From Rothia nasimurium (GTDB lineage: Bacteria; Actinomycetota; Actinomycetes; Actinomycetales; Micrococcaceae), in NCBI RefSeq assembly GCF_004569295.1, contig NZ_SPQC01000017.1, positions 1 through 54,644 of the forward strand: a stretch of 54,644 bases of DNA. The letters are read 5' to 3'. Under the pieces are notes generated by a model that was given only the letters and a program-made list of their open reading frames with translations, was not told where the DNA came from and did not search any database. The translations under genes and the position numbers were made by a program. Below, piece after piece: positions 3,857-35,875 of the stretch (within the stretch, counting starts at the first letter, position 1; each line of letters starts with the position of its first letter).

Positions 3857-3963
3857 GGGGGTGCCCCTGCATCGCAGCTCGTTGGCTCGGGGCTGGCGTG
3901 AATTGTGACGAGCCCCCGGGCGAGGAGCAAGAGGGTCACGAGCCAAGATGTAGGGGCACCCCC
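3857..3963 (+). repeat. Dispersed palindromic element, copy A
   Basis: Outer stem 3857-3873 / 3947-3963 (16 of 17 pairs). Inner stem GCTCGT 3877-3882 / ACGAGC 3938-3943. Conserved core GGCTGGCGTGAATTG at 3891-3905 and second motif AGCAAGAGGGTC at 3926-3937. It lies between the broken GNAT gene and the sucrose PTS terminator. It shares its core, but not its stem sequences, with copies B, C and D. Confidence 0.7.
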
Positions 3964-3982
3964 GTACTGGTATAGCGCAAAC

Positions 3983-4033
3983 AAACCCGCCCCGCGCGCG
4001 TCCTTACTATCAGGACGGGCACGGGGCGGGTTT
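3983..4033 (-). terminator. Terminator of the sucrose PTS gene
   Basis: Stem AAACCCGCCCCG 3983-3994 / CGGGGCGGGTTT 4022-4033 with an apical CGTCCT/AGGACG helix. It follows the stop of the minus-strand EIIBCA gene and is T-rich on both sides, so it may act in both directions. The apical helix resembles that of the katA terminator at 48972. Confidence 0.75.
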
Positions 4034-4050
4034 TCTTCGCCAAGAAAATT

Positions 4051-6036
4051 TTAGACGGCTGCGGTCTTAGCGGCTACGCTGACCAGCTTGTCGCGGCCTG
4101 CGGCCACGGTTGAGCCTGCAGCAACTGCAAGAGCAGTTGAGTCAACGGTCTTCTTGGCGTTGGTGATGACCAGCGGAGTGGTCAGGGGGTAGCCTGCGGC
4201 CTTGATGGCGGCCATATCGAATTCGACGAGCACGTCGCCGCGCTTGACTTCCTGGCCCTTTTCGACCTTGGGGGTGAAGTGCTTGCCGTCCAGCTCGACG
4301 GTGTCGAAGCCGATGTGCATGAGGACTTCTACGCCCTTGTCGGTGCGCATGCCGATGGCGTGGCCGGTGGGGAAGGCTACGGTGACCTTACCGTCGGCGG
4401 GTGCGTAGAGCTTGCCTTCGGTGGGTTCTACGGCGGTGCCGGGGCCCAGGGCGCCGGAGGCGAAGGTGGGGTCTGATACCGCTGAGAGTTCGACGGCGGT
4501 GCCGTTGAGGTGGGCGGTCAGTTCGTAACCTTCGGTAGCAGCTGCGGGGGCGGACGCCGCGGGGGCAGCTACAGACGCAGCGGTAGCGGCGGGGGTGGCG
4601 GCTTCAACTTCTTCTTCGGCAACCTGGCCGGCGAAGGCGCGCTTACCGTAGATGAAGGAGGCACCGGTGGAGAGGACGGCTGAGGTCACGATAGCGATGG
4701 CGAAGCCTGCCCAGCCTGAGCCGGCTTCGGTGCTGATGGAGGGGAAGCCCAGGAAGCCTGCGGCACCGGGAGCCATGGCCTTGATGCCGAAGATAGCGAT
4801 GAGGGTTGAGGCTACAGCTGAGGCGCCCATACCGATGTAGAAGGGCCAGCGCAGACGCAGGTTGACGCCGAAGATGGCGGGTTCGGTGATGCCGAGGAAG
4901 GCTGAGGGCGCGGTGGCGCCGGCAAGACCCTTCATCTTCTTGTCCTTGGTGGTCAGGTAGACGCCGAGGGCGGCACCGCCCTGGGCGACGTTAGCCATGG
5001 AGGCGATAGCGAAGATGAAGGAGCCGCCCTGGGTGAAGAGCTGGAGTTCGATGGGTGGGAAGGACTGGTGCAGGCCGGTGATGACGATCGGTGAGTAGAT
5101 CAGGCCAAAGAGGAAGCCGCCTACGGGGCCAGCGGTGGTGTAGAGCCAGTTGATAGCGTCACCCAGCATAGTACCCAGCTTGAACATGGGCGGGCCGACC
5201 AGCATGAAGGTGGCAAAACCGGTGATCAGCAGGGTCAGGGTGGGGGTGAACATGAAGTCGATAACACCCTTGAGAATCTTGTGGAAGAACTTCTCAACGT
5301 TGGCCAAGATGAAGGCAACCAGGATGATGGGCAGGACGGTGCCCTGGTAGCCAGCCTGCTGCACCTGGATTCCGAAGACGTCCCAGTAGGTCATGGTGCC
5401 GTCCTGCAGGGCGGCAGCTACATTGTAGCCGTTGACCAGGGAGGGGAAGACCATGACAGCGCCCATGGTGAGACCCAGGTAGGGGTTACCGCCGAAGACC
5501 TTGGTGGCGGTGAAGCCGACGAGCACGGGAAGGAAGGCGAAGGCCGCTGCTGAGAGCAGGTTGACGATTTCGGCGAAGCCTGTCCAGGCCGGGTACATCT
5601 CGATGAGGGAGAGCTCGGGGTCAAAAATCTTGGGTGCGGTCAGCACGTTGTTGAGTGCCATGAGCAGACCGGAACCGACCAGTACGGGGATGATCGGGAG
5701 GAAGATTTCTGAGACGACCTTGATGAAGCGGGTGAAGAGGTTGCCCTGGTCCGCCGCTACGTTCTTGAGTTCGTCCTTTGAGACCTGTTTCATGCCGGCT
5801 ACGGCCATATGCTTGTAGACCTCGTCAACGTCGCCGGGGCCCACGATGATCTGGAACTGGCCGGAGTTGTTGAAGGTACCCTTGAGGTCCTCGTCGTTGT
5901 CCAGGGCAGCCCGGTTGATGACGTTCATGTCTTTGAGCACCAGCCGCAGGCGGGTGGCGCAGTGGGCGCCTGCTGCGATGTTGTCCGTTCCGCCAACGGC
6001 GGTGAGGACTCGCTCAGCCACGGATTTATGATCCAT
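4051..6036 (-). CDS. scrA: PTS transporter EIIBCA, probably sucrose-specific
   Basis: 661 aa. It imports and phosphorylates a sugar at the membrane using PEP-derived phosphate. The EIIB domain is N-terminal (residues ~1-85, phosphocysteine in [10 protein letters not shown]). EIIC follows (~105-470, ten or so hydrophobic helices, [13 protein letters not shown] as in sucrose/beta-glucoside permeases). After an Ala/Pro linker (~475-505) comes a glucose-type EIIA domain with the active His in [19 protein letters not shown] lies just upstream of ATG 6036. Sucrose is the best guess because the adjacent hydrolase is GH32 and both genes carry similar LacI-type operators; trehalose or a beta-glucoside is less likely. 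Confidence 0.88.
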
Positions 6037-6123
6037 GTCTTCTCCTTGGTGTATGGGCCTGGCTCCCCCTATGTGGTTGGTTCAGCCTCGGCGCGAATGA
6101 TGATGTTTACCGCAAAATAAACA

Positions 6124-6139
6124 TGCCAATCGTTTGACA
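6124..6139. promoter_or_regulatory. LacI-type operator upstream of the EIIBCA gene
   Basis: TGCCAATCGTTTGACA is an imperfect palindrome centred on CG, the typical LacI-family architecture. It matches the site before the hydrolase (8481-8496) at 13 of 16 positions in the same orientation. On the minus strand a TAGTAT -10-like hexamer lies immediately upstream, so bound repressor would cover the transcription start. Confidence 0.7.
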
Positions 6140-6174
6140 TACTAACACCAAAAAAAGGGGCAAAAACAGCCCTT

Positions 6175-6216
6175 TACAAAAGGTCGGTGGCCACCTGTGT
6201 TAGGTGGCCGCCGACC
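6175..6216 (-). terminator. Terminator of the free EIIA gene
   Basis: Fourteen-base stem 6182-6195 / 6203-6216 with one G-T pair and a 7-nt loop, followed on the minus strand by a T-rich run. It separates the EIIA gene from the EIIBCA gene, so they are probably separate transcription units. Confidence 0.75.
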
Positions 6217-6234
6217 CTATCTCAACGTTTGTTT

Positions 6235-6801
6235 TTAGCCCTTGCGAGCTGCGGTGATGAAGTCAGCACCGGCTGCTACATCGCTCCCTGCATTAGCTAC
6301 GGCAAGGTCGGCGACAGAGCTCTTGGCGTTGGTGATAACCAGCGGGGTGGTTACGGGGTAGCCTGCGGCCTTGACCTGCTCCAGGTCGAACTCCACCAGC
6401 ACCTGGCCACGGGTGACGGTATCGCCCTTCTTAACCTTGGGGTCAAAGAACTTGCCGTCCAGCTCCACGGTATCGAAGCCCACGTGAATCAGGATTTCCA
6501 GGCCGTCTGCGGTGCGAATGCCGAAGGCATGGCCGGTGGGGAAGGCAACGGTTACTTCACCGTCTGCGGGAGCTACAACCACGCCTGCGGTCGGCTCAAT
6601 AGCGGCACCGGGGCCCAGGGCGCCGGAGGCGAACATCTGGTCGCTCACGCCGGCAAGCTCAACAACGGTACCGTTCATGTGGGCGGTCAGAGCGGACGCG
6701 CCAGCGGCGGACGGTGCTGCGGCGGGAGTAGCTGCGGGAGCGGGGGTCTGCCCTGCGGTGTCGTCGCTACCGCCGAAGAGCTTTTTGAAGAAGCCTGCCA
6801 T
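6235..6801 (-). CDS. crr: Free-standing PTS glucose-type EIIA protein
   Basis: 188 aa, cytoplasmic phosphocarrier. It begins MAGFFKKLFGG, then an Ala/Pro linker, then one EIIA domain with the phosphorylated His in [14 protein letters not shown] and the second active-site His in PTGHAFG. ATG 6801 is preferred over GTG 6810 because GAGG lies eight bases upstream of 6801. The domain is closely similar along its whole length to the EIIA domain of the EIIBCA protein at 4051, indicating duplication. It could phosphorylate EIIBC permeases that lack their own EIIA. A palindrome upstream (6876) suggests its own regulation. Confidence 0.9.
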   Translation of the reverse strand: MAGFFKKLFGGSDDTAGQTPAPAATPAAAPSAAGASALTAHMNGTVVELAGVSDQMFASGALGPGAAIEPTAGVVVAPADGEVTVAFPTGHAFGIRTADGLEILIHVGFDTVELDGKFFDPKVKKGDTVTRGQVLVEFDLEQVKAAGYPVTTPLVITNAKSSVADLAVANAGSDVAAGADFITAARKG

Positions 6802-6875
6802 GGTTGTCACCTCATAGTGGTTGGGAGTGATGGGGCCGCTGTGTGCGGCGTCTCCACCAGCCTACCACCGCCGGC

Positions 6876-6890
6876 AACCTGTGAGACAGG
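6876..6890. promoter_or_regulatory. Palindromic candidate operator upstream of the EIIA gene
   Basis: ACCTGT-GAG-ACAGGT, a perfect 6-bp inverted repeat with a 3-nt spacer. It shares CCTGTnAGACAGG with the palindrome in the promoter of the LacI-family gene (1039-1053). On the minus strand a TAGGCT -10-like hexamer lies a short distance downstream. No binder is known to me. Confidence 0.45.
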
Positions 6891-6964
6891 TCTTGCTGAG
6901 CCCGGCCGGTGCCAGGTCACGGAAAATTTTTCGCCCCCTGCACTAAGGCACCGGCTCCTCTCCC

Positions 6965-8446
6965 CTAGTCTTCTACAAGCCAGGCAGCTTCAAGGCTCAG
7001 TACGGCCGCCTCATCTGCTACCAGGCGGACGGTTCGTTTGGCTCCGGTGAAGTAGGCGCGGGATGAGAAGACGGCGGCTCCCCCATCGAGGAAGAGTTCG
7101 GTTCCGGAGGCATCAACCAGCAGGTCGAAGGTGCGGGTAGCGCTGTGCTCTAGGGTGCGGTGGCGCTCTGCCCCGCCCACGGTGTAGCGGCTGCCGGTAC
7201 GATCCAGGTGGGCGCCGTCCTCGCTCAGGGTCAGCGCCAGGGCCTGCCCCGCCGCGTCCTCCGCGATAATCTGCACGGGTTCGGCTACCGCTACTTCACC
7301 GCGCAAGCGCCAGACGCGGGCGTCCGCCAGTTCCGCAATCTCGCCGTGAGCTGCGGGCACAACAGGGGCGGGCGCCAGGGCGCTATCAAGCTGCTCCACG
7401 GGGTTCTGGTAGACGCGGCCAGCACGCAGGGTGAGGCGGCGGGGGTAGGTCTGCATGTGCACCCAGTGCTTGTCCCAGGAGGGGTGGTCGTCCTGGTCGG
7501 CGTTGCCGAACCAGCCCTGGAGCACGGCGTGGGAGCCGTCCTGCCCCACTCCGTGGAAGCACTGGGGGGCGTAGAACTCAGTACCGGCGTCCAGCTCGGT
7601 GAAGGGGGTGGTGACCTCAAACTGGGTGCCGGTGAGGGTACCCACGATGTAGCCGGTCTGGAAGATGTTGTTGTACTTCTCCCCGTCGGCCTCCATACCC
7701 TGGGGGCTAAAAATCAGCACGTCCCTAAGCTCGCCGGTTTCTTCGTCGCGTAGCTGAATCAGGCCGGGGCACTCGTACATGTAGCCCAGGTTGGCCAGGG
7801 CGGGGTCCGAGAAGGTGAGCTCCCCGTCGAAGGTCCAGGTGCGGCGGTCAGGTGAGGAGTAAAGCACCACAGCACCGGTTTCGTCCTCGCGCTGGGCGCC
7901 GATGACGGCGTAGAAGGTGCCCTCGCGTTCAATTACGTGGGGGTCGCGGTAGTGGGCGGTGTAGCCCTCTTCGGGGCCGTTGATAAAGACCTCTTGCTTG
8001 GTGAAGGTCTTGCCCTGGTCGGGTGAGGTAAAGAGTACCTGGTAGGCTTCCCGGTTGCCGTCGGCGTCCTTGACGTTGCCGGTGTAGAAGAACTCAAAGG
8101 TGCCGTCCTCGCCCACGAAACCCGAGCCCGAGTAGCAGCCGTTCTTATCGAACCAGTCGGTGGGGGCGATGGCAGTGCCGCGGTCCTGCCAGTGGGTGAG
8201 GTCGTCGCTGGTGGCGTAGCGCCAGAAGACGGCGCGGGTGGGGTGGACGGGTGAGTACTGGTAGAAGGCGTGATAGGTACCTTCATGATAGATCAGCCCG
8301 TTGGGGTCGTTGAGGCGGCCCACGGGCGGTGCCAGGTGTAGGGCCGGGTAGTCGGGGTCGGTGCGCACCTGCTCGTGGTAGGTGGTATAGGCTTGCTCGG
8401 CGGCTGCGAGCAGTTCGGCGGCGTCCGGACGTCCGGGCTTAGTCAC
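6965..8446 (-). CDS. scrB: Glycoside hydrolase family 32, sucrose-6-phosphate hydrolase
   Basis: 493 aa, cytoplasmic (no signal peptide). It would split sucrose-6-phosphate from the PTS into glucose-6-phosphate and fructose. GH32 signatures are visible: nucleophile motif RLNDPNG near residue 45, the SGS segment (CYSGSGF), the RDPHV stabiliser motif and the acid/base motif ECPGLIQL, followed by the C-terminal beta-sandwich. The GTG start at 8446 has AAGGAG six bases upstream. A LacI-type operator lies 35 bases upstream of the start. Fructan hydrolysis is an alternative for the family, but the PTS neighbour favours a phosphorylated substrate. Confidence 0.9.
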   Translation of the reverse strand: MTKPGRPDAAELLAAAEQAYTTYHEQVRTDPDYPALHLAPPVGRLNDPNGLIYHEGTYHAFYQYSPVHPTRAVFWRYATSDDLTHWQDRGTAIAPTDWFDKNGCYSGSGFVGEDGTFEFFYTGNVKDADGNREAYQVLFTSPDQGKTFTKQEVFINGPEEGYTAHYRDPHVIEREGTFYAVIGAQREDETGAVVLYSSPDRRTWTFDGELTFSDPALANLGYMYECPGLIQLRDEETGELRDVLIFSPQGMEADGEKYNNIFQTGYIVGTLTGTQFEVTTPFTELDAGTEFYAPQCFHGVGQDGSHAVLQGWFGNADQDDHPSWDKHWVHMQTYPRRLTLRAGRVYQNPVEQLDSALAPAPVVPAAHGEIAELADARVWRLRGEVAVAEPVQIIAEDAAGQALALTLSEDGAHLDRTGSRYTVGGAERHRTLEHSATRTFDLLVDASGTELFLDGGAAVFSSRAYFTGAKRTVRLVADEAAVLSLEAAWLVED

Positions 8447-8480
8447 GCGGGGCTCCTTGGGTGGGTGCGATAGCGGGGTC

Positions 8481-8496
8481 TGTCAATCGTTAGTCA
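8481..8496. promoter_or_regulatory. LacI-type operator upstream of the GH32 gene
   Basis: TGTCAATCGTTAGTCA, CG-centred, matches the EIIBCA operator at 13 of 16 positions. Its position just upstream of the hydrolase ribosome-binding site fits repression by the LacI-family protein encoded at 1103. Confidence 0.7.
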
Positions 8497-8596
8497 TATC
8501 CAGCTTACCCCCTGCCCTCTCCCCAGGTCTTAGGTCGGCAGCGTGCAGGGCAGACCGGCAAATCTTCCAGATTATGATATGGGCTAGCCCACGCGC

Positions 8597-9619
8597 CTAG
8601 CTGCAAAGGTCTACGACGGCACTTACTGCCAGGTGGTCAGAATCGCCCACCTGCTGGTAGGTCACTTCTTCACCACCAGCAGGTGGCCCCTGCATCACCA
8701 TGATGTGATCGATGGGGGCCCGTATTCCTAGTACTCCGCCGACTGGCCAGGTGCCCTCAATCCGGTAGGTGGCCAGGGCAGCGTCCGCACCCAGCTGTGA
8801 GCGCACCCCCGCGTAGCTGGCCAGGCCGCCGTGGAGCAGGGTCGCGTTGAAGTCACCGGCAATTAGGTTGGGGCGATTCTCGTTGCGAGCCAACCGGTCA
8901 ATTGTTGCCAGGTCATCGCGCCACTGCTGCATGTAGGAGGGGACGGGCGGGGCGGTATGCACCGCCAGTAGTGAAGGGTGGCCGGTATCGTCATTTTCAG
9001 GAGCCAGCATCAGGGCGCCGAAGGTCATGGGCACTTCCTGAGCCATGTAGGTGCCCAGCCGGTCGCTCACCAGGGTCAGGGTGGGGGCGATATGAGCCTT
9101 GCCGCTGGTGGAGGCGAATACCTGGTAGCCGGGAACGCCGCCAGCAAGAGCGGGTGTATCGGGTGAGACCTCAGGGAACACCAGGAAATCCGGTTCATCG
9201 GCCAGCAGCCGAGCCAGGGACTGGTCGGTCAGGGTATCGAGGGCGTTGTAGGTGGTAACCCGATAGAGCTGCATATCAACGCACCCAATGGAGGGCACCC
9301 CGCGCGCCTGGTAGCGCACTGCCCCGTAGGGGTCGGTGACAGCCAGCAGGCTAGAGGCGGCACAGGCTACCGCCGTCAGCCCGGCAAGGACGCGGGTAGC
9401 TCCGCTGGTTGTACGGCGCAGCGCCACTGGTAGTGCCACAATCAGGACGCCCGCCCCGACCACCACGAGCAGGGTGGGGAAGGCGACGGCCTGGGCTATG
9501 ACCAGGCGGGTGGTCAGCCAGGCGGTGACCGGGTGCCCCGGCCACACCAGGATAGCCAGCCAGGCCAGAGCACCGGCCAGCGACAGGCACCAGAATGCAC
9601 GAATCAGAGTCTTGCCCAT
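8597..9619 (-). CDS. Membrane-anchored endonuclease/exonuclease/phosphatase-family protein
   Basis: 340 aa. The first ~100 residues hold three hydrophobic segments (AGALAWLAILVW, FPTLLVVVGAGVLIVALPV, LAGLTAVACAASSLLAV), placing the C-terminal domain probably outside the membrane. That domain shows the EEP fold motifs: FPEVSPDTPAL (metal-binding Glu), HTAPP, AGDFNAT, IDHI and SDHLAV (catalytic His). Similar actinobacterial proteins are annotated as membrane EEP hydrolases of unknown substrate, so nuclease, phosphodiesterase and phosphatase activities are all possible. It is followed by the convergently placed ribosomal gene block, with no functional link visible. Confidence 0.85.
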   Translation of the reverse strand: MGKTLIRAFWCLSLAGALAWLAILVWPGHPVTAWLTTRLVIAQAVAFPTLLVVVGAGVLIVALPVALRRTTSGATRVLAGLTAVACAASSLLAVTDPYGAVRYQARGVPSIGCVDMQLYRVTTYNALDTLTDQSLARLLADEPDFLVFPEVSPDTPALAGGVPGYQVFASTSGKAHIAPTLTLVSDRLGTYMAQEVPMTFGALMLAPENDDTGHPSLLAVHTAPPVPSYMQQWRDDLATIDRLARNENRPNLIAGDFNATLLHGGLASYAGVRSQLGADAALATYRIEGTWPVGGVLGIRAPIDHIMVMQGPPAGGEEVTYQQVGDSDHLAVSAVVDLCS

Positions 9620-9684
9620 GCCCCCAGCCTAACTAAAACTAACAGGCAGGGGAAGAGGTGGGGCAGCGTCCGTCCTTAAACAAA

Positions 9685-9725
9685 AAGCCGCAGGGGCGGC
9701 AACCCGTAACGGGTGCCGCCCCTGC
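9685..9725 (-). terminator. rplL terminator
   Basis: Near-perfect hairpin 9690-9706 / 9710-9725 (GCAGGGGCGGC paired with GCCGCCCCTGC, plus ACCCG/CGGGT), followed on the minus strand by TTTTTG. It closes the rplJ-rplL operon. Confidence 0.85.
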
Positions 9726-9750
9726 GCCAAAGATAAGAAAAGTAAGAAAC

Positions 9751-10128
9751 TTACTTGAGGGTGACGGTTGCGCCAGCGCCTTCGAGAGCTTCCTTAGCCT
9801 TCTCTGCGTCTTCCTTGGAAACGCCTTCGAGAACGGGCTTGGGAGCGCCGTCAACGAGGTCCTTAGCTTCCTTCAGACCCAGTGAGGTGAGGGCGCGAAC
9901 TTCCTTAATAACGCCGATCTTCTTGTCGCCAGCTGATTCGAGGATAACGTCGAATTCTGACTGCTCTTCAGCAGCACCAGCGTCGCCGCCAGCAACACCA
10001 GCAACAGCAACGGGAGCAGCTGCGGTTACGTCGAATTCTTCTTCGAATGCCTTAACGAATTCGGAAACCTCAACGAGTGACAGTTCCTTGAATGCTTCAA
10101 TGAGTTCTTCGATTGAAAGCTTAGCCAT
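9751..10128 (-). CDS. rplL: 50S ribosomal protein L7/L12
   Basis: 125 aa, the usual length. The N-terminal dimerisation helices ([20 protein letters not shown]) are followed by an Ala/Gly hinge (~40-55). The C-terminal factor-binding domain carries the family sequence [20 protein letters not shown] and ends [14 protein letters not shown]. It forms the ribosomal stalk with L10 and recruits translation GTPases. It is the second gene of the rplJ-rplL operon and ends at a strong terminator. Confidence 0.98.
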
Positions 10129-10248
10129 GAGATTGGCTCCTTCTTTGATTCAGTTGCAAGCCTCAGTATTTCAGCCTGCGAGCTTGAAAATTGTGGGGTG
10201 GCCCAGGCGAGTGGGCCGAAGTCTGTGCGGTGGGCAGAGACGAGGCGA

Positions 10249-10758
10249 TTACTCGGCCTCGGGTGCTACGCCTTCCTGCTCTTCGAGCTTGATACGCAGA
10301 GCGTCAACGGTGCGAGCAACCTTTGCGATTGCGCCCTTTGCGCCGCCTGCGACCTTTGCAAGAAGTACCTCGCGTGATTCGAGGCTTGCAAACTTGTTGA
10401 TGCCAGCTTCGTCGAGAGCTTCGCCCTCGAAGTAACCGCTCTTAACGATTAGCTGGGGGTTAGCCTTGGCAAAGTCACGCAGACCCTTCGCAGCATCAAT
10501 GAAGTCGCCCTTGATGAATGCGATTGCGCTGGGGCCGTGGAGCTGACCATCGAATGCGTCGATGCCAGCTTCCTTAGCCGCGATAGCGGTCAGAGTGTTC
10601 TTTACCACGGCGTACTCGGTCTCAGCACCCAGTGCACGACGAAGTTCCTTCATCTGTGCAACGGTGAGACCACGGTACTCGGTGAGAATTACGCCGTTTG
10701 AGGATTCAAGGAGTTCCTTGATCTCAGAGACGGCAGCAATCTTATCCTGTGTTGCCAT
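10249..10758 (-). CDS. rplJ: 50S ribosomal protein L10
   Basis: 169 aa, starting MATQDKIAAVSEIKELLESS at ATG 10758; longer in-frame starts run into the leader. The core ...VILTEYRGLTVAQMKELRRAL and the C-terminal helix that binds L7/L12 (ARTVDALRIKLEEQEG) are as expected. L10 anchors the stalk to 23S rRNA and, with L12, typically represses its own operon by binding the mRNA leader. The leader upstream here holds a terminator hairpin. Confidence 0.97.
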   Translation of the reverse strand: MATQDKIAAVSEIKELLESSNGVILTEYRGLTVAQMKELRRALGAETEYAVVKNTLTAIAAKEAGIDAFDGQLHGPSAIAFIKGDFIDAAKGLRDFAKANPQLIVKSGYFEGEALDEAGINKFASLESREVLLAKVAGGAKGAIAKVARTVDALRIKLEEQEGVAPEAE

Positions 10759-10793
10759 GGTGTTCCTTCCAGTTCTTATCCCGCCAGGCCAAC

Positions 10794-10965
10794 AAAAAAA
10801 TGCCCCGACGCGCAGGCATCGAGGCATAATACAAGCCCAGCAAAAACTGGTTTGTATTCTGTTATCGGCACCTACGCAGGTGGGCTGGTTAGCCCTTATC
10901 GCACCTGTAAAAGGCACAGACCGGCGGTCTTTGGTTACTTCATCTAACCACGGCTTGCGGGGCCC
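10794..10965 (-). promoter_or_regulatory. rplJ-rplL leader with transcription attenuator (L10-leader type)
   Basis: On the minus strand the 5' leader folds into several helices. One is GCACCTGTAAAAGG... around 10865-10915, with a GGTGC/GCACC pairing. A second is ATACAA/TTGTAT with CCAG/CTGG inside (10829-10857). The last is TGCCTCGA/TCGGGGCA (10801-10826), followed by seven Ts (10794-10800), which is an intrinsic terminator ahead of the rplJ start. This matches the general design of L10 leaders, where L10-L12 binding controls readthrough. The exact fold is inferred. Confidence 0.65.
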
Positions 10966-12273: not shown

Positions 12274-12293
12274 CACGCTCGTTAGGGAAGCAG

Positions 12294-13382: not shown

Positions 13383-13409
13383 TTGAATAACCGTTAGGGT
13401 CTAAGAAAC

Positions 13410-14242: not shown

Positions 14243-14674
14243 TTAGCCTTCGACGGTGATGCCCATGGAGCGGGCGGTGCCTGCGATAATCTTCGCTGCG
14301 GCGTCGATGTCGTTAGCGTTCAGGTCTTCCATCTTGGTCTGGGCGATTTCCTTGACCTGGTCCAGGGTCAGTGAGCCGACCTTCTGGGTGTGGGGTACGC
14401 CGGAGCCCTTAGCAACGCCAGCGGCCTTCTTGATGAGCTGCGCTGCAGGAGGGGTCTTGGTGATGAAGGTGAAGGAGCGGTCCTCGTAGACGGTGATTTC
14501 TACGGGAATGATGTTGCCACGCTGGGATTCGGTGGCTGCGTTGTAGGCCTTGCAGAATTCCATGATGTTGACGCCGTGTGCACCGAGTGCGGGGCCAACG
14601 GGGGGCGCGGGGTTAGCGGCGCCTGCCTGGATCTGCAGCTTGATGAGGCCTGCGACCTTCTTCTTGGGAGCCAT
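14243..14674 (-). CDS. rplK: 50S ribosomal protein L11
   Basis: 143 aa, normal length. It starts [20 protein letters not shown] and contains the Pro-rich [20 protein letters not shown] loop and the C-terminal RNA-binding domain ending [11 protein letters not shown]11 forms the GTPase-associated centre with L10/L12 and is needed for RelA-type stringent responses. It forms an operon with rplA. Confidence 0.98.
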
Positions 14675-14936
14675 TTGTGTTTGGTCCTTTTCTTAGCTGG
14701 TGGACCGGCGCACAGGAGTATGCACCGGGCGGTGGTGCTGCCATGGCGGCGGTAGCACCGTGTAGGGGCGCACCGGCGTGGGTGCGCACATACAGTCTTC
14801 TATCTTAGTACGGTCTGAGCTTTAAAGCTATTGCGGGGCGGACGCCTACCCCTGGGTGTTTGCTCACAGGCGGGCAGGTGCGGGGTTAGGCCGATTGTGC
14901 AAACACCCTCACGATAGACTCCCCCACTTTTGAACA

Positions 14937-14975
14937 AAACAAAAGGGCCGCCCCACATCAAGCGGGGCGGTCCTT
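14937..14975 (-). terminator. nusG terminator
   Basis: Hairpin 14941-14954 / 14964-14975 (GGCCGCCCC against GGGGCGGTCC), followed on the minus strand by TTTTGTTTTG. The remaining rplK-nusG gap (14675-14936) should hold the rplK promoter and a small hairpin at ~14730-14757; I see no gene in it. Confidence 0.8.
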
Positions 14976-14992
14976 GACCAGACAAGCTGGTT

Positions 14993-15739
14993 TTACATCT
15001 TGGTAACCTGTGAGAAGTTCAGGGTCACGGGGGTCTCGCGTTCGAAGACAGAAATCAGCACAACCATTGATGAGGCTGCGGCATTGATCTCTGAGATGGT
15101 TGCGGGCATGCCCTCGAAGGGGCCTTCCTTAACGGTGACAGCCTCGCCAATCTCAAAGCCGGTTTCAACAGCGGGAGCAGCCTTGGGGGCGGCACCTGCT
15201 TCTGCCTGCTCAGCTTCAAAGACGGGAGCCAGCATGTCGACAACTTCATCGAGGCGCAGGGGAACCGGGTTGTAGGCGTCCTGCCCAACGAAGCCGGTTA
15301 CACCGGGGGTGTGGCGCACAACGCCCCAGCTCTCGTCGGTCAGGTTCATACGCACCAGAGCGTAGCCGGGGACGCGCACACGGCGAACCAGCTTCTTGGT
15401 GGTGTTCTTGACTTCCATGACCTCTTCCATGGGGACCTGAACCTCGAAGATGTCATCTTCAGCGTTCATGGTCTGGGCACGGGATTCGAGGTTAGCCTTG
15501 ACCTTGTTCTCGTAGCCGGCGTAGGTGTGAATGACGAACCATTCACCTTCCTGGCGGCGCAGCTTAGCCTTGAACTCTTCGAGCGGGTCAACGGCGGGCT
15601 CGCCAGCTTCTTCAGCTTCGGTGACTTCTTCGACGACCTCAGCGGCTGCTACTTCAACAGCCTCGTGGCCTTCTTCGGTTGCCTGCTCTGCAGGTTCTAC
15701 GACCTCTTCGGTTTCAGGTGCAACTTCCTGCTCGGACAC
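14993..15739 (-). CDS. nusG: Transcription termination/antitermination protein NusG
   Basis: 248 aa. An acidic, Glu/Ala-rich extension of ~55 residues precedes the NGN domain (WFVIHTYAGYENKVKANLESRA), as often in actinobacteria. The C-terminal KOW domain reads EIGEAVTVKEGPFEGMPATI. NusG binds elongating RNA polymerase and links it to Rho or ribosomes. It sits downstream of secE, the usual bacterial arrangement. Confidence 0.97.
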   Translation of the reverse strand: MSEQEVAPETEEVVEPAEQATEEGHEAVEVAAAEVVEEVTEAEEAGEPAVDPLEEFKAKLRRQEGEWFVIHTYAGYENKVKANLESRAQTMNAEDDIFEVQVPMEEVMEVKNTTKKLVRRVRVPGYALVRMNLTDESWGVVRHTPGVTGFVGQDAYNPVPLRLDEVVDMLAPVFEAEQAEAGAAPKAAPAVETGFEIGEAVTVKEGPFEGMPATISEINAAASSMVVLISVFERETPVTLNFSQVTKM

Positions 15740-15840
15740 GCTTTCCTGCTTTCGTCATTGGGGTTTACTTGAAGGCGCGCACGCCCTACATACACAAAAG
15801 ATTCTACGGGTTAGGCCGCCATCGGCCTAGCTTCGTGCTT

Positions 15841-16104
15841 CTAGCTGATACCGTTACCAAAAATCCAGAAGGCTCCCTGACCGAAAACGTAATCAAGGCC
15901 CGAGATGAAGAGCATCATAAAAGTAACGAAGAAAAGAACAATAATCACGTACTGCACCAGTTCTTTACCGGTGGGGGTGGTGACTTTTTTGAGTTCTGCG
16001 ATAACTTCGCGTAAGAACTGGAAAATACGGCCGAAAAAGCCCAGCTTCTTCTCTGCGCCTGGTTCTTCAGAATCGGCGGTCCTGGCGGCGATTGATTTAG
16101 CCAT
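15841..16104 (-). CDS. secE: Preprotein translocase subunit SecE
   Basis: 87 aa, start at ATG 16104 (MAKSIAARTADSEEPGAEKK). The amphipathic helix FLREVIAELKKVTTPTGKEL precedes a single membrane span VIIVLFFVTFMMLFISGL, the canonical short SecE. It is an essential part of the SecYEG channel. Gene order tRNA-Trp, secE, nusG is standard. Confidence 0.96.
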   Translation of the reverse strand: MAKSIAARTADSEEPGAEKKLGFFGRIFQFLREVIAELKKVTTPTGKELVQYVIIVLFFVTFMMLFISGLDYVFGQGAFWIFGNGIS

Positions 16105-16179
16105 GGTAGGCCCGCCCCTTTCTAGACTCATCATGAACATGAACTGTTCGATTGACAAATAAACCTGTGAGGCTTGAAG

Positions 16180-16252
16180 CAGGGCGGACAGGACTCGAAC
16201 CTGCAACCTGCGGTTTTGGAGACCGCTGCTCTACCAATTGAGCCACCGCCCT
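16180..16252 (-). tRNA. tRNA-Trp (CCA anticodon)
   Basis: A full cloverleaf reads on the minus strand: acceptor AGGGCGG/CCGCCCT, D-arm GCTC/GAGC, anticodon loop CTCCAAA and T-loop TTCGAGT, with G as discriminator. 73 nt with no CCA encoded. It lies upstream of secE. Confidence 0.97.
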
Positions 16253-16502
16253 TTGAAGGTTACCCCTTCAAGGAGGCTTGAAACCCTTGCGGGTACAAAC
16301 CTAAAGCTGTTCGGTTGCGAACAACGTTATCTACTGTAGAACATATTTTTTGCTTTGGCAATTTGATGCGCGCCAGTCCCTCTCCAGGCTCCCGCCCACC
16401 CTATGATTTAAGGGGTAGGTGCCAGCCGCCGCGCTGGCGTCCGCACCCTTTTTGCCATAACCCAACGGTCCTGCCCATAGGACGGAAGCGAGAACCTCCC
16501 CC

Positions 16503-17705
16503 ATGACTGCCCGCGTATCACGCCGCATTGGCGCTATCGCCCCCTCGTCCACCCTCGTCGTTGACGCTAAAGCTAAGGCCCTCAAGGCGCAAGGACGCCC
16601 AGTGATCGGCTTTGGTGCGGGCGAGCCTGACTTCCCCACCCCCGACTACATTGTGGACGCCGCCCGCAAGGCTCTTGAGGACCCCGCCAACTTCCGCTAC
16701 ACCCAGGCTGCGGGCCTGCCCGCCCTCAAGCAGGCAATCGTTGAGAAGACCAAGCGTGACTCCGGCATCGATATCGACGCCTCCCAGGTCATCGTGACCA
16801 ACGGCGGCAAGCAGGCCGTCTACCAGGCCTTTGCCACCGTGATTGACGAGGGCGACGACGTGCTCCTGCCCGCCCCCTACTGGACCACCTACCCCGAGGC
16901 TATCCACCTGGCTGGCGGCAACCCCATCGAAGTCTTCGCGGGAGCCGACAAGGAATACAAGGTCACCCCCGACATGCTGGAGGCAGCCTACACCCCCGCC
17001 ACCAAGGCCCTGATTTTCGTATCCCCCTCTAACCCCACCGGCGCGGTCTACACCCCCGAAGAGACCAAGGCCATTGGCGAATGGGCGCTGGAGAAGGGCA
17101 TCATCGTGCTCACCGACGAAATCTACGAGCACCTCACCTACGACGGCGTACCCTTCACTTCCATCATCAAGGCTGTGCCCGCCCTGGCTGAGAACACCGT
17201 CATTCTCAACGGTGTTGCAAAGACCTACGCCATGACCGGCTGGCGCGTGGGCTGGATGATTGCCCCCGCCGACATCACCAAGGCGGCAACCAACCTGCAG
17301 TCACACATGACTTCTAACGTCAACAACATTGCTCAGCTGGCGGCACTTGAAGCTGTCTCAGGCTCCCTGGACGCTGTCAACGAGATGCACAAGGCTTTCG
17401 ACCGCCGCCGCAAGACCATCGTTGAGGGGCTTAACGCTATCGAGGGAGTCCACTGCCCCACCCCCAAGGGCGCCTTCTACGCCTACGCAGACGTCACCGG
17501 CCTGCTGGGCAAGACCATTGCGGGCAAGACCCCGCAGACCTCTGCCGAGCTTGCCGAAATCATCCTGGAAGAGGCCGAAGTAGCGGTTGTACCCGGTGAG
17601 GCTTTTGGCCCCTCCGGCTACCTGCGCCTGTCCTACGCCCTGGGAGATGAAGACCTCGCCGAAGGCCTAGCCCGCATGCAGAAGCTGCTGGCAACCGCGC
17701 AGTGA
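16503..17705 (+). CDS. aspC: Pyridoxal-phosphate aminotransferase class I (aspartate-type)
   Basis: 400 aa. Fold-type I features: [16 protein letters not shown] near residue 35, [11 protein letters not shown] with the PLP-contacting Asn, [13 protein letters not shown] (pyridine-N Asp), the Schiff-base Lys in [16 protein letters not shown] and the substrate-binding Arg in [10 protein letters not shown]. It interconverts aspartate and oxaloacetate, or possibly aromatic substrates, in the cytoplasm. The aspartate-versus-aromatic preference cannot be settled from sequence. It is followed by two dispersed palindromic elements. Confidence 0.9.
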
Positions 17706-17717
17706 TTTGCCTGATTC

Positions 17718-17827
17718 GGGTACGTAGGACGCCCCTTTGCCGACTAACCTTCTTGCTGGTTCGCTGGCGCTCACAAGCAATTCATGCCAGCCCCAGCCAG
17801 TCGGCGCCAGGGGCGTCCTGCGTACCC
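17718..17827 (-). repeat. Dispersed palindromic element, copy B (inverted)
   Basis: Outer stem 17718-17736 / 17809-17827 (19 bp, one G-T). Inner stem GCCGACT 17739-17745 / AGTCGGC 17799-17805. The core on the minus strand, GGCTGGCATGAATTG, occupies 17778-17792 and the second motif AGCAAGAAGGTT occupies 17746-17757. It lies 12 bases after the aminotransferase stop and is oriented opposite to copy C. Confidence 0.75.
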
Positions 17828-17844
17828 CATGGAGGTACCAAGTA

Positions 17845-17952
17845 AGCGCGGCATATGAACCGAAAGCAAGCTGGCTCGGCGGCTGGCGTGAATCGCATCT
17901 GAGCGAAGCGAAGCTGCGAGAGGGTCGCTTGCGAAGGTTCATATGCCGCGCT
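17845..17952 (+). repeat. Dispersed palindromic element, copy C
   Basis: Outer stem 17845-17861 / 17936-17952 is perfect over 17 bp, with a sequence unrelated to the outer stems of the other copies. Inner stem GCAAGC 17866-17871 / GCTTGC 17927-17932. The core GGCTGGCGTGAATCG is at 17881-17895; the second motif is diverged (TGCGAGAGGGTC). Only 17 bases separate it from copy B. The remaining gap to pfkA (17953-18189) holds a TACAAT -10-like box at 18082-18087 and no gene. Confidence 0.75.
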
Positions 17953-18189
17953 ATCTGTAATATCCGGAGCGTCCGAACCTACTACCTCACCCGACATTAA
18001 AGTCATCACTGACTCTAACGGCGAGGTTGAAAACATACAACGCAACCTATCCCACAGCTACCCAACACAACCCCTCTTTACTACAATAGAAACCAACAAA
18101 GACCCACACTTTGGACTGCCTAAACGGGCAAAAACCCAACAGGGTCACCACCATCATTCCCCACCAGGAATAACACAAGGAGTTTCTCC

Positions 18190-19221
18190 ATGAAGATCGG
18201 TCTACTCACCTCCGGCGGCGACTGCCCCGGCCTGAACGCTGTTATCCGTGGCGCTGTGCTTAATGGCGTCAAGACCTACGGTGACGAGTTCGTTGGCTTC
18301 CGCGACGGTTGGCGCGGTGTTGTTGAAGGCGACTTCATAGATCTGCCCCGTACCAAGGTTCGTGGTCTGGCTCGTACCGGTGGCACCATTCTGGGTACTT
18401 CCCGTACTAACCCCTTCGATGGCCCTAAGGGTGGCCCCGAGAACATCGAGATCATGATGGAGCGCAACGGTATCGACGCTATTGTCGCTATCGGTGGCGA
18501 GGGTACTCTGGCTGGCGCTAAGCGCCTGGCGGACGCGGGCCTGCCCGTGGTTGGTGTGCCCAAGACTATCGATAACGACCTGCAGGCAACCGACTACACC
18601 TTCGGTTTCGACACCGCAGTTTCTATCGCAACCGACGCTCTGGACCGCCTGCGCACCACCGGCGAGTCCCACCACCGCGCCATGGTCGCTGAGGTTATGG
18701 GCCGTCACGTTGGTTGGATTGCCCTGCACTCCGGCATGTCCGGTGGCGCTCACGCTATTCTGATTCCCGAGGTCAAAGTCTCGATGGAAGAGGTTTCTGG
18801 CTGGGTCAAGGAAGTTCACGACCGCGGCCGCTCCCCCCTGATCGTTGTTGCTGAGGGCTTCATCCCCGAGGGCTTCGACGATGTGATGGCTGGTAAGGGC
18901 CAGGAGAAGGACGGCCGCCCCCGCCTGGGCGGTATTGGCGACTGGGTTGCGCAGGAGATTGAGCGCATCACCGGCATTGAAACCCGTAACACCACCCTGG
19001 GTCATATCCAGCGCGGTGGCGCCCCCACCGGCTTTGACCGTGTGCTCTCAACCCGCCTGGGCATCCAGGTTGTCGATATGATTCACGACAAGGAGTGGGG
19101 CAAGATGGTTGCCATGCAGGGCACCGAGATTAAGCGCGTTGACTTCGCTGAGGCCCTCAACGGCCTGAAAACCGTTCCGGTCCACCGCTACGAAGAGGCT
19201 AAGGTTCTCTTCGGCCGCTAG
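18190..19221 (+). CDS. pfkA: 6-phosphofructokinase
   Basis: 343 aa with AAGGAG seven bases before the ATG. It phosphorylates fructose-6-phosphate in glycolysis. Landmarks are SGGDCPGLNAVIRG at the N-terminus, GGEGTL for the nucleotide site, PKTIDNDL with the catalytic Asp, the fructose-phosphate site MGRHVGW and ERITGIETRNTTLGHIQRGG. The Lys in PKTIDND combined with Gly after GGE is the pattern of the actinobacterial group III PFKs, which can be ATP-dependent despite a Lys that is typical of pyrophosphate enzymes. The donor is therefore probably ATP but not certain. Confidence 0.93.
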   Translation: MKIGLLTSGGDCPGLNAVIRGAVLNGVKTYGDEFVGFRDGWRGVVEGDFIDLPRTKVRGLARTGGTILGTSRTNPFDGPKGGPENIEIMMERNGIDAIVAIGGEGTLAGAKRLADAGLPVVGVPKTIDNDLQATDYTFGFDTAVSIATDALDRLRTTGESHHRAMVAEVMGRHVGWIALHSGMSGGAHAILIPEVKVSMEEVSGWVKEVHDRGRSPLIVVAEGFIPEGFDDVMAGKGQEKDGRPRLGGIGDWVAQEIERITGIETRNTTLGHIQRGGAPTGFDRVLSTRLGIQVVDMIHDKEWGKMVAMQGTEIKRVDFAEALNGLKTVPVHRYEEAKVLFGR

Positions 19222-19240
19222 GCCACACGCCTCACACTAG

Positions 19241-19286
19241 AAACGACTGCCTCCCCAAGAATTCTTGGGGAGGCAGTCGTTTTTAT
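19241..19286 (+). terminator. pfkA terminator
   Basis: A perfect 42-bp palindrome spans 19241-19282 (arms AAACGACTGCCTCCCC and its complement), followed by more Ts to 19284. The symmetric A/T ends could also stop the convergent ygfZ transcript. Confidence 0.9.
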
Positions 19287-19343
19287 CGGCGCTTGCTTTA
19301 CCGTGTCTGTGCTGTGTCTACCGTGGTGCGAGCTCAGAGAACC

Positions 19344-20486
19344 CTAGCGCAGAAAGTCCCCCATGTTCCGGCGTCCTGCCACCTGGCCGGCGTCCGGAGC
19401 GACAATCACGGTCTGGGCGGCAGCGTACTGGCTGGCTGCGGGGTTGCCGTCGGCGTCCGTATCTCCCCCGTCCACCACGTGCAGGGTGGCGGCGGGGTCA
19501 ACCGATCGCTTCAGGACGGCCAGGGCGATAGGCCCAGCCTCATGGTGCAGGGCCACCGAGGTTACGGTGCCCACCTTCTTCTCACCGTTCATCACGGCAG
19601 AACCGGCAGCGAGCAGGGTGTGCTCGGAACCGTCCAGGTCGAGGAAGGTCAGGCGGCGGGGCGGGTGCCCCAGGTTATGCACGCGGGCCACGGTCTCCTG
19701 GCCCTTGTAGCAACCCTTCTCCAGGTGCACGGCGGTGCGGAGCAGGTCGAGCTCGTGGGGGATGGTCTTCTCATCGGAGTCCACGCCCACGCGCGGCCGC
19801 CAGGCCTCAATGCGCAGGGCCTCAGCAGCCCAAACCCCGGCCAGCTGAGCCCCCTCGATTGTATCCAGCAGACGGTGGGCGGGCACGATGGTCAAGTAGC
19901 GGCGGTAGGCGGACGCCGGGTGCTCCCCTTCCCCAGCGGACGCGTAGGTGTAGCCCCCGGGGGCGATACCAGCGCCCCAGGGGTCAGTCCAGACGATGCC
20001 GCCTGCCAACACGGCGTCCGCCCCATCGACCTCGCGCGGGTCAAGGGTGGAACCCAGCACCGCGTAGGTTTCGGTGCGGTCGGTAATCTCAACGCGCAGC
20101 ATGAACTTCATGCGGTTCAGATACTCGGCCAGGGGCGCGGCCTGGTCCCGTTCGGTGATCAGCCAGACCGAGCCGTCCTTCTCAACAGCAAAAGCGGAGA
20201 ACTCGATGCGGCCCTGCGGGGTCAGCAGCAGAAGCTCGGTAGAGTCCCCCTCCCCCAGCCCGGCTAAGATCTGACTTGAGAGGGTGGTCAGCCAGCTCAG
20301 GCGGTCCTCACCCGCAACCGTCACCACGCCCAGGTTGGAGTGGTCAACCAGGGTAAGCCGGGTACGGCGGGCCAGGGCCCGCTGCTCAGCAACCGGGTCG
20401 CCGTAATGGGCAGCGACCCCGGCGTCCGCCCCGGACGCCGCAAAAGCACCCGGGCGAGACAGCAGGGGGCTACGGTAGGCAGTCAC
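19344..20486 (-). CDS. ygfZ: Folate-binding YgfZ/GcvT-type protein
   Basis: 380 aa. The diagnostic YgfZ motif KGCYKGQETVAR is present near residue 240, and the aminomethyltransferase-like fold shows in GRIEFSAFAV and LAYLNRMKF-type segments (AEYLNRMKFMLRVEITDR). YgfZ proteins use tetrahydrofolate and assist assembly or repair of certain Fe-S enzymes. The GTG start at 20486 overlaps the TAG stop of the upstream gene by one base (TAGTG), so the two are probably translationally coupled. Confidence 0.92.
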   Translation of the reverse strand: MTAYRSPLLSRPGAFAASGADAGVAAHYGDPVAEQRALARRTRLTLVDHSNLGVVTVAGEDRLSWLTTLSSQILAGLGEGDSTELLLLTPQGRIEFSAFAVEKDGSVWLITERDQAAPLAEYLNRMKFMLRVEITDRTETYAVLGSTLDPREVDGADAVLAGGIVWTDPWGAGIAPGGYTYASAGEGEHPASAYRRYLTIVPAHRLLDTIEGAQLAGVWAAEALRIEAWRPRVGVDSDEKTIPHELDLLRTAVHLEKGCYKGQETVARVHNLGHPPRRLTFLDLDGSEHTLLAAGSAVMNGEKKVGTVTSVALHHEAGPIALAVLKRSVDPAATLHVVDGGDTDADGNPAASQYAAAQTVIVAPDAGQVAGRRNMGDFLR

Positions 20487-21151
20487 TACTGGTCACCTGC
20501 AAGGTTTTCGCCGCCGAACATGGTGGCACCCAGGTCTTCACCGGTCATGGACGAGGTCTTACGCAGCTCAGCCGAGGCGTGCTTCTCAAGCTTGCGGGTT
20601 TCGGGGTTAGCGGTTTCCCAGTCCCACATCAGGTTGCCGTTGACCAGGCCCCAGAGGCGTACAGAACCGGCATAGTCCTTGGTGATGTCGTCCTTGAGCA
20701 TGTTGCCGGTCTGCATACGCACCACCGGGCCCTTAATCATGCCCACGTAGTTTTCGGTCAGGCCGCCGGGGTGGGCGATGGTAGCCAGCAGGTTGAAGCC
20801 GCCGTCCTCGTTGCGCAGGGACTCAACGGACTCGGCGTCCTGGTGCACGGGAACCACATCTGCAGGCACCAGGCCGGGCCCGACGTCGCCGTCCATCTGG
20901 GGGCGGTCAATCTGCCAGAAGCCGGTCTCAACGGTGATGGTGCGTAGCTTCTGGCCCTGGTCATCGAGCAGGAAGCTCTCGGCGCGGTATTCGATAAAGG
21001 GCAGGCCGTCCTGGCTGAAGGTAATAATCTGCCCGAAAGGGGTTGATTCTGAGCCCTCGTACCAGAGGGAGCCGGTACCCTCCCAGGCGCCCAGCAGCCA
21101 GGAGAAGGGCACGAGTTCGGGGGTAAGGTTGGTGGGAATTTCAATAGCCAT
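20486..21151 (-). CDS. Nitrobindin-like heme-binding beta-barrel protein
   Basis: 221 aa. The GAWEGTG motif near the N-terminus (FSWLLGAWEGTGSLWY) and PFIEYRAESF mark the FABP-like nitrobindin family, small cytoplasmic beta-barrels that bind ferric heme and interact with peroxynitrite or nitric oxide. It is the first gene of a two-gene unit with ygfZ. ATG 21151 has no Shine-Dalgarno, but a TACACT -10-like box lies seven bases upstream, so the mRNA may be leaderless. A GTG at 21157 is an alternative start. Confidence 0.85.
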   Translation of the reverse strand: MAIEIPTNLTPELVPFSWLLGAWEGTGSLWYEGSESTPFGQIITFSQDGLPFIEYRAESFLLDDQGQKLRTITVETGFWQIDRPQMDGDVGPGLVPADVVPVHQDAESVESLRNEDGGFNLLATIAHPGGLTENYVGMIKGPVVRMQTGNMLKDDITKDYAGSVRLWGLVNGNLMWDWETANPETRKLEKHASAELRKTSSMTGEDLGATMFGGENLAGDQ

Positions 21152-21158
21152 ACACACC

Positions 21159-21164
21159 AGTGTA
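21159..21164 (-). promoter_or_regulatory. Likely -10 box of a leaderless promoter
   Basis: TACACT on the minus strand ends seven bases before ATG 21151, placing the expected transcription start at or next to the A of the start codon. No ribosome-binding site is visible, consistent with leaderless initiation as is common in actinobacteria. Confidence 0.45.
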
Positions 21165-21177
21165 GTGCGGGAGATGT

Positions 21178-21290
21178 GCGGGCGGCAGGGCGTCCCGACA
21201 GACGACTGGCTGGGGCTGGCATGAATTGCTCATTCGCACCAGCGAATCAGCAAGAAGGTTAGTCGTCAGAGGGGCGCCCCTGCCGCCCGC
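21178..21290 (+). repeat. Dispersed palindromic element, copy D
   Basis: Outer stem 21178-21196 / 21271-21290 with one bulge and one mismatch. Inner stem GACGACT 21201-21207 / AGTCGTC 21261-21267. The core GGCTGGCATGAATTG is at 21214-21228 and AGCAAGAAGGTT at 21249-21260. It lies just upstream of the nitrobindin-like gene. Its core is closest to copy B, but its inner stem differs by a compensated base pair (GCCGACT/AGTCGGC against GACGACT/AGTCGTC). Confidence 0.75.
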
Positions 21291-35874: not shown

Positions 35875-35875
35875 G

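What the first reader, a model, noticed from the sequence alone, without database searches (positions are those of the whole stretch)
3857..21290. Four dispersed elements share a core but have covarying, copy-specific stems
Copies A (3857-3963), B (17718-17827, inverted), C (17845-17952) and D (21178-21290) are 106-113 bp long. All carry GGCTGGCRTGAATYG near the 5' inner side, and A, B and D carry AGCAAGARGGTY just before the 3' inner strand (diverged in C). The inner stem is GCTCGT/ACGAGC, GCCGACT/AGTCGGC, GCAAGC/GCTTGC or GACGACT/AGTCGTC, and the 17-19 bp outer stems are unrelated in sequence between copies yet nearly perfectly paired in each. Conserved unpaired motifs plus compensated stems imply selection on a fold, as a structured RNA, a hairpin DNA mobile element or a protein-binding cruciform. 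All copies are intergenic and lack T-runs, so they are not ordinary terminators. I do not recognise the family.
Basis: partly seen in the sequence, partly recalled or inferred. Interest (0 to 1): 0.85.

Follow-up and report, generated by a model that had tools for sequence, protein, structure and literature searches.

The report
Flipping hairpin repeats in Rothia genomes
The four elements belong to a family of about fifty short hairpin-forming repeats scattered between genes in this Rothia-group genome; they share a folded core, each has its own matched base stem, and related species often carry them turned round or have lost them.

Summary
All four copies fold as described; a covariance model finds 51 copies in this genome and 1-87 in 20 of 35 genomes of the genus. 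In a sample of 149 genomes of the family, only this genus matched. The relatives that bear names are Rothia nasimurium and kin. No Rfam family reached its threshold. Inner helices covary. Base stems pair 89% with their own partner and 29% with another copy's. G:T mismatches exceed A:C in the core-sense strand (26:12 in distinct arms; 25:8 in type II, 1:4 in type I), so a single-stranded fold, probably RNA, seems to be kept. But compensated outer stems are not simply selection on a fold: at matching sites in a sister species the core is often inverted inside its stem (24 same, 17 flipped; 13 and 7 where arms match well), hairpins are often missing or shortened, and one arm was rewritten to match the other. 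These are marks of DNA template switching. Best reading: a genus-specific, non-autonomous intergenic hairpin repeat of the REP/ERIC/BOX kind, unusual in its locus-specific base stem. How that stem is acquired and what moves the core remain open.

The parts
3857..3963 (+). Copy A, whole hairpin element
3857..3873 (+). A: 5' arm of base stem P1 (17 bp)
   Evidence: fold
3891..3905 (+). A: conserved core GGCTGGCGTGAATTG
3926..3937 (+). A: 3' motif AGCAAGAGGGTC
3947..3963 (+). A: 3' arm of P1
   Evidence: fold
17718..17827 (-). Copy B, whole hairpin element, core on the minus strand
17718..17735 (-). B: one arm of P1 (3' arm in core-sense reading)
   Evidence: fold; sister sites
17746..17757 (-). 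B: 3' motif AGCAAGAAGGTT
17778..17792 (-). B: conserved core GGCTGGCATGAATTG
17810..17827 (-). B: other arm of P1 (5' arm in core-sense reading)
   Evidence: fold
17845..17952 (+). Copy C, whole hairpin element, back to back with B
17845..17861 (+). C: 5' arm of P1 (17 bp)
   Evidence: fold
17881..17895 (+). C: conserved core GGCTGGCGTGAATCG
17915..17926 (+). C: 3' motif TGCGAGAGGGTC
17936..17952 (+). C: 3' arm of P1
   Evidence: fold
21178..21290 (+). Copy D, whole hairpin element; its core is inverted relative to the six sister genomes that carry it
21178..21196 (+). D: 5' arm of P1 (19 bp)
   Evidence: fold
21214..21228 (+). D: conserved core GGCTGGCATGAATTG
21249..21260 (+). D: 3' motif AGCAAGAAGGTT
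21272..21290 (+). D: 3' arm of P1
   Evidence: fold

Best explanation
The four copies are members of a Rothia-group family of non-autonomous, intergenic hairpin repeats. The heritable unit is a folded core of about 75 nt: stem P2, the unpaired GGGGCTGGCRTGAA, variable stem P3 with a small apical hairpin, then AGARGGTY and P2'. The core-sense strand is what folds, probably as RNA. Each copy sits on a base stem P1 whose sequence is specific to the locus. SHOWN: copy number; restriction to one genus in the genomes sampled; covariation of P2 and P3; pairing of P1 with its own partner only; scarcity between divergent genes; inversion of the core inside P1 between related genomes; frequent absence, shortening or replacement at matching sites. 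SHOWN MAINLY FOR TYPE II: G:T over A:C in P1. INFERRED: the family spreads by copying the core to new sites; P1 is made from, or taken from, DNA at the landing site; replication template switching between the P1 arms keeps the arms matched and flips the core; copies persist near gene 3' ends because an mRNA hairpin there is harmless or mildly useful.
For: 51 copies in G000, 1-87 in 20 of 35 genus genomes. P2/P3: 92.8% of cells paired against 78.3% shuffled and 68 doubly changed cells against 21.6, 0 of 500 shuffles as high for either. P1: 88.7% own pairing against 28.9% swapped over 79 distinct arms. G:T 47 against A:C 17 in 137 distinct arms, 26:12 in 79 stricter ones; P3 19:4 over 116 distinct hairpins. 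Divergent gaps hold 3 of 43 copies in G152 where they make up 24% of intergenic bases and 6 of 137 distinct copies over all loci. Flips: D against six genomes and B in G151; a G152 site inverted in G169 with 110 bp 100% identical; L001, L003, L036 by inspection; 17 flipped against 24 same. Arm rewriting AGA to TTC in L021. Published template-switch outcomes match: arm homogenisation and spacer inversion (PMC8604942, passages), stems created in one event (PMC8794818, abstract).
Against: In one search two of five measures do not stand out (pairs with a change on both sides 7 against 6.5, 253 of 500 shuffles; further pair types 22 against 18.6, 21 of 500). The G:T bias is 1:4 in the 20 distinct type I arms, and only 18:11 where both neighbouring genes run against the core. 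No mobiliser was found and no target-site duplication. No clean pre-insertion site was identified. The unpaired internal loop between P1 and P2 is not expected if P1 arises by simple snap-back copying from P2. Some of the 17 flips are doubtful: L019's two are one two-element segment, and L154, L208 and L221 match mostly through an arm sequence shared by type I copies.
Confidence: 0.55

Rival explanations
1. The core inserts into the loop of hairpins that already stand at gene ends, so P1 is simply the stem of the host hairpin and needs no template switching to arise.
For: Long perfect intergenic hairpins are common in G152: 236 inverted repeats against 2 in a shuffled control, 184 of them with loops under 20. 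At the B site G170 has a plain hairpin with the same inner arms GGACGCCCC/GGGGCGTCC. At a G152/G169 site the arms read AAGGACGCGC...GCGCGTCCTTTT, like a terminator.
Against: In the G170 hairpin nothing of the plain loop is retained in the occupied relatives. Plain stems have a broad length range without a peak at 17-19, whereas P1 lengths of type II peak at 17-18. T after the hairpin is only 0.30 against A 0.25.
Confidence: 0.22
2. A regulatory or structural RNA whose many copies are each kept by selection for a cis function at the 3' ends of genes, with no present mobility.
For: Covariation; G:T bias; hairpins 96-97% identical where flanking intergenic DNA is 89.5%, in 15 matching same-orientation pairs chosen for similar arms; gaps with an element have somewhat fewer other hairpins (13 of 33 against 71 of 130 matched gaps, not a strong difference).
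Against: Copy number from 0 to 87 within one genus; many sites of 142 copies lack a recognisable core in G152 (69); no fixed direction to tandem genes (13 with, 11 against).
Confidence: 0.12
3. A classical MITE moved by an insertion-sequence transposase acting on terminal inverted repeats.
For: Dispersed, intergenic, hairpin-shaped; some type I copies share longer arms ending in GAGGCTTATTCAT.
Against: In most copies the outer arms are locus-specific (79 distinct arms). Direct repeats of 3 or more bp flank 9 of 78 copies against about 15 by chance. Y1 transposase is in 3 of 35 genomes and absent from G000 and G152. DDE transposases were not searched.
Confidence: 0.08
4. A protein-binding DNA cruciform, recognised as double-stranded DNA.
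For: Palindromic DNA with a conserved sequence.
Against: Conserved G:T pairs in P2 (columns 19-76, 20-75) and the bias in P3 and type II P1 exist on one strand only; the other strand would carry A:C mismatches.
Confidence: 0.03

Closest known systems
BOX, RUP and SPRITE repeats of Streptococcus pneumoniae (PMC3049150, passages read)
   Same: Small interspersed repeats confined to a species group, strongly folded when transcribed, probably non-autonomous
   Different: In BOX and RUP the terminal repeats are part of the conserved sequence and pair with each other; here the base stem is locus-specific in most copies
ERIC, REP/BIME and Correia elements (features as summarised in PMC3049150; otherwise recalled)
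   Same: Intergenic palindromes that can act on mRNA when transcribed
   Different: Conserved ends; REP is tied to Y1/RAYT transposases, which are absent from most genomes that carry this family
Template-switch inverted repeats (PMC8604942, passages; PMC8794818, abstract)
   Same: Arm homogenisation, inversion of the spacer, stems created in one event
   Different: The cases read there are short spacers in yeast genes and RNA-gene stems, not a repeat family; here the spacer is a conserved core of about 75 nt
Small hairpin-loop inversions of chloroplast genomes (recalled; only a search listing seen)
   Same: Loop flips inside conserved arms
   Different: Single sites, not copies of one element

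Membership tests
MITE (features as given in PMC3049150) | Terminal inverted repeats shared between copies | tested here: not met
   79 distinct P1 arms; 28.9% pairing when swapped. Some type I copies do share arms
MITE (features as given in PMC3049150) | Target-site duplication | tested here: not met
   9 of 78 copies with a direct repeat of 3 or more bp against about 15 by chance
MITE (features as given in PMC3049150) | Highly base-paired secondary structure | tested here: met
   z -6.6 to -8.1
MITE (features as given in PMC3049150) | A transposase in the host with matching ends | tested here: inconclusive
   Y1 in 3 of 35 genomes, TnpB in 9 of 35; DDE transposases not searched
REP/RAYT | Y1 (RAYT-type) transposase in genomes with many copies | tested here: not met
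   Absent from G000 (51 copies), G152 (49) and G163 (68); present only in G151, G161, G162
Retron or group II intron derivative | Reverse transcriptase in the genome | tested here: not met
   3 of 35 genomes, among them G149 with no copies; absent from G000 and G152
Small interspersed repeats of the BOX/ERIC kind | Many intergenic copies of a folded sequence limited to related species | tested here: met
Small interspersed repeats of the BOX/ERIC kind | Copies are transcribed | not testable with these tools
   no RNA-seq held
Any Rfam 15 family | Match at gathering score | tested here: not met
   window: only five tRNA matches; four loci and one long form: only matches far below gathering score
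Intrinsic terminator | Hairpin followed by a T-run | tested here: not met
   T fraction 0.30 in the 8 nt after P1 over 78 distinct copies
Template-switch inverted repeat | Spacer inversion within matching arms | tested here: met
   D, L003, L036 and the G152/G169 site
Template-switch inverted repeat | Arm homogenisation | tested here: inconclusive
   L021 is a clear case; in 13 well-matched same-orientation pairs 3 of 234 pairs changed on both sides, all in L054

The most novel reading that the evidence does not exclude
A mobile element that builds its own base stem on arrival: the folded core lands at a single-copy site and the cell, or an unknown enzyme, copies about 17-19 nt of one flank in inverted orientation onto the other side. 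Each insertion would then sit in a locus-specific hairpin that can later flip. This would be an inverted target duplication instead of the usual direct one.
Probability: 0.13. Interest if true: 0.85.

Novelty: new variant of a known kind. Interest (0 to 1): 0.5.

Why it matters
It separates two things that covariation analysis usually merges: helices whose pairing looks selected (P2, P3, the G:T bias) and a helix (P1) whose arms are locus-specific and behave as template switching predicts. With dozens of different stems per genome, several related species and frequent core flips, the family is a natural experiment on how perfect hairpins arise and persist in bacteria, and a warning that compensated stems alone do not prove a functional RNA. 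If P1 is really made from the landing site, it would be a new outcome of transposition.

Tried and rejected
Known RNA families: none at threshold. Viral contigs: 0 matches to a strict pattern. Phages and plasmids: no match, with copy D alone as query. Y1 transposase, reverse transcriptase and TnpB as mobilisers: presence does not follow copy number. Target-site duplication: none. P1 arms as copies of sequence elsewhere: best matches of 18 G152 arms are no better than those of 40 random intergenic 17-mers (means 14.7 and 14.4). T-run terminators.

Inverted target duplication at B: the unoccupied G152 site keeps exactly one arm, which first looked like a pre-insertion site. But the element is in the more distant G164 and in G169, and the join lies at a CCCC repeat, so deletion in G152 is at least as likely. 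D in G169 and the L210 site have the same form.

Rows dropped: the alignment for model R1 took 38 of 45 extracted rows; left out were L002, L011, L012, L016, L027 (long forms), L035 and L049; three more copies (L003, L024, L050) had not matched the 3' motif search and L043, L045, L048 were set aside as not belonging. One search covers 142 copies: 24 same, 17 flipped, 69 no core found in G152, 25 no ortholog, 7 too far. The 69 include true orthologs whose core no longer fits the search pattern (L010, L013). A looser count of 142 copies, not the same set, gave 22 same, 11 flipped, 2 both, 44 short, 29 other, 24 no ortholog, 10 far. One search used 15 pairs chosen for similar arms, which biases it towards conservation. 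In one search the first few P1 pairs are near 100% partly because the stem is defined there.
Full report
Observation. The four copies were read directly and folded: each forms one long hairpin with a z-score between -6.6 and -8.1. The core GGCTGGCRTGAATYG occurs exactly 27 times in the genome against 0 for the reversed control. A covariance model built from 38 copies gives 51 matches in the genome at E up to 0.001, and in the window A-D and nothing else below E 0.7.

Anatomy, in core-sense direction: base stem P1 (locus-specific); a small internal loop, often GNA on the 5' side and NNA on the 3' side; P2 (GCCGACTGGC/GTTAGTCGGC in one group, here called type II; GCTGCTGGCTC/GGGTCGGCAGC in the other, type I); unpaired GGGGCTGGCRTGAA; stem P3, variable in sequence but paired (TTGC/GCAA, TCGC/GCGA, TCCCAGC/GCTGGGA, TGATATC/GATATCA); GA steps around a small apical hairpin; AGARGGTY; P2' (the type names are mine). 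Five copies in this genome have a longer inner domain, and G152 has related hairpins with the same ends and loops of about 155-200 nt, some without the core motif.

Statistics of the fold. Over 12 pairs of P2 and P3 in 38 sequences, 92.8% of cells pair (shuffles 78.3%), 68 cells have both sides changed (shuffles 21.6), covariation score 0.49 against 0.24, with 0 of 500 shuffles as high. Two other measures do not stand out: pairs with a change on both sides (7 against 6.5) and further pair types (22 against 18.6, 21 of 500). Sliding the partner by 1-3 columns gives at most 51.8% paired and 18 doubly changed cells. For P1, 79 distinct arms pair 88.7% with their own partner and 28.9% with a swapped one. 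Over 176 copies pairing is 89% or more for the first ten bp, 66-81% to bp 16, 69% at 17, 51% at 18, 43% at 19 and at background from 20 on; 87 copies have stems of 16-19 bp. Type II stem lengths peak at 17-18; plain intergenic hairpins of G152 have no such peak.

Which strand. P1 mismatches in core-sense reading are 47 G:T against 17 A:C in 137 distinct arms (p 2e-4), with 7:1 where genes run with the core, 17:3 in convergent gaps and 18:11 where both genes run against it. After stricter clustering they are 26:12 (p 0.03) in 79 arms, 25:8 (p 0.005) in type II and so 1:4 in type I; arms swapped between copies show 12.1% and 11.9%. P3 shows 19 against 4 in its first five pairs over 116 distinct hairpins. 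P2 keeps G:T pairs in most copies. A double-stranded target would show no such difference. Related copies are not independent, so these p values are rough.

Distribution. 20 of 35 genomes of the genus, this one included, carry 1-87 matches. Of 149 genomes sampled across the family, 5 match, all of this genus, 1 of 32 genera; that search used stricter filters that lose weak matches.

Context. A lies between a PTS sugar transporter gene and an ORF without a Pfam match; B and C between an aminotransferase and a phosphofructokinase gene; D between a THAP4-like heme-binding protein gene and an ORF without a Pfam match. In G152, 3 of 43 copies lie in divergent gaps (24% of intergenic bases are divergent), 11 in convergent, 24 in tandem (13 with and 11 against the genes) and 5 inside crude ORF calls. 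Over all loci 6 of 137 distinct copies are in divergent gaps, 7 unresolved. In gaps with an element, 13 of 33 have another hairpin against 71 of 130 matched gaps, a weak hint that the element can stand in for one.

Related genomes. At the B/C and D sites: D in this genome is inverted relative to the six others that carry it (G151, G152, G161, G162, G163, G170), and the internal-loop bases travel with the core; G169 lacks it. B has the same orientation in G164 and G169 and the opposite one in G151, where the arms also differ. G152 lacks B but keeps one arm. G170 has a plain hairpin with the same inner arms. At another site, G169 carries 110 bp identical to G152 in inverted orientation, while flanks are 93.5% and 95% identical; G163 has the G152 orientation. 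Over 142 copies compared with G152: 24 same, 17 flipped, 69 without a recognisable core, 25 without ortholog, 7 too far; where at least 26 of 36 arm bases match, 13 distinct pairs are same and 7 flipped. Two of the 7 (L019) are one two-element segment and three (L154, L208, L221) rest largely on an arm sequence shared by type I copies, so the safest flips are L003, L036, D, the G152/G169 site and, by inspection, L001. In the 13 same-orientation pairs, 219 of 234 arm pairs are identical, 12 changed on one side and 3 on both (all three in L054). So arms do not evolve fast, and their difference between loci probably dates from when each copy arose. In L021 the internal loop reads AGA in G152 and TTC here, the exact complement of the other side. 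Many G152 sites without a core keep remnants joined at short direct repeats such as CAGCGA, CCCC or GCTACC, which reads as deletion (part of the output was cut).

Mechanism. Template switching between inverted repeats is reported to homogenise arms and invert the spacer (PMC8604942, abstract and passages) and to create perfect stems in one event (PMC8794818, abstract). It accounts for the flips and the L021 rewriting. It does not explain how the core reaches new sites, or why the P1/P2 internal loop stays unpaired. Candidate mobilisers were sought and do not follow copy number: Y1 transposase in 3 of 35 genomes, reverse transcriptase in 3, TnpB in 9; DDE transposases were not searched. No target-site duplication is seen.

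Literature. Searches for Rothia with repeat, intergenic and palindromic (3 papers, by title and abstract unrelated) and for Rothia nasimurium with genome (12 of 68 listed) showed no description of such repeats. The library is open-access only, so this is weak evidence of absence.

Verdict. A real family of hairpin repeats, not found in the catalogues searched, of the REP/ERIC/BOX kind, with two unusual properties: locus-specific base stems and frequent inversion of the core within them. Compensation in P1 should not be counted as evidence of RNA selection; compensation in P2 and P3 and the G:T bias of type II can be.

Noticed in passing
G152 stretches L233-L352, e.g. L244:5112, L300:12327, L234:4172: Other families of long perfect intergenic hairpins (AAGGACGC..., AAGGGGACC..., AGGTACCATCTAAATCAG...); 236 inverted repeats against 2 in a shuffled control.
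   Followed up: partly
L021 (G000 C69:6546) against its G152 site: A textbook quasi-palindrome correction: the internal loop AGA in G152 reads TTC in this genome, exactly complementary to the opposite GAA.
   Followed up: yes
L002, L011, L012, L016, L027; G152 at 828162, 946399, 1879771: Longer forms with extra domains; an inner sub-hairpin (GAGATT...AATCTC) appears in both orientations, so loops of nested hairpins seem to flip too.
   Followed up: no
window 17718-17952; L019 1501 and 1589; G152 near 179400; G132 C6 41873-42069: Elements sometimes stand back to back as divergent pairs; one such pair recurs in G000, G152 and apparently G132.
   Followed up: no
L009, L018, L037, L039, L046 and others: Some type I copies share a longer imperfect palindrome ending in GAGGCTTATTCAT, like conserved terminal repeats.
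   Followed up: no
L056, L203, L218, L226 sites in G152: Core-less mini-hairpins with loop AGCGAGC remain where relatives have the element, explained by deletion between two CAGCGA repeats.
   Followed up: partly
window 35803-36047: Cluster of three tRNA genes on the minus strand; two more at 16180 and 41408.
   Followed up: no
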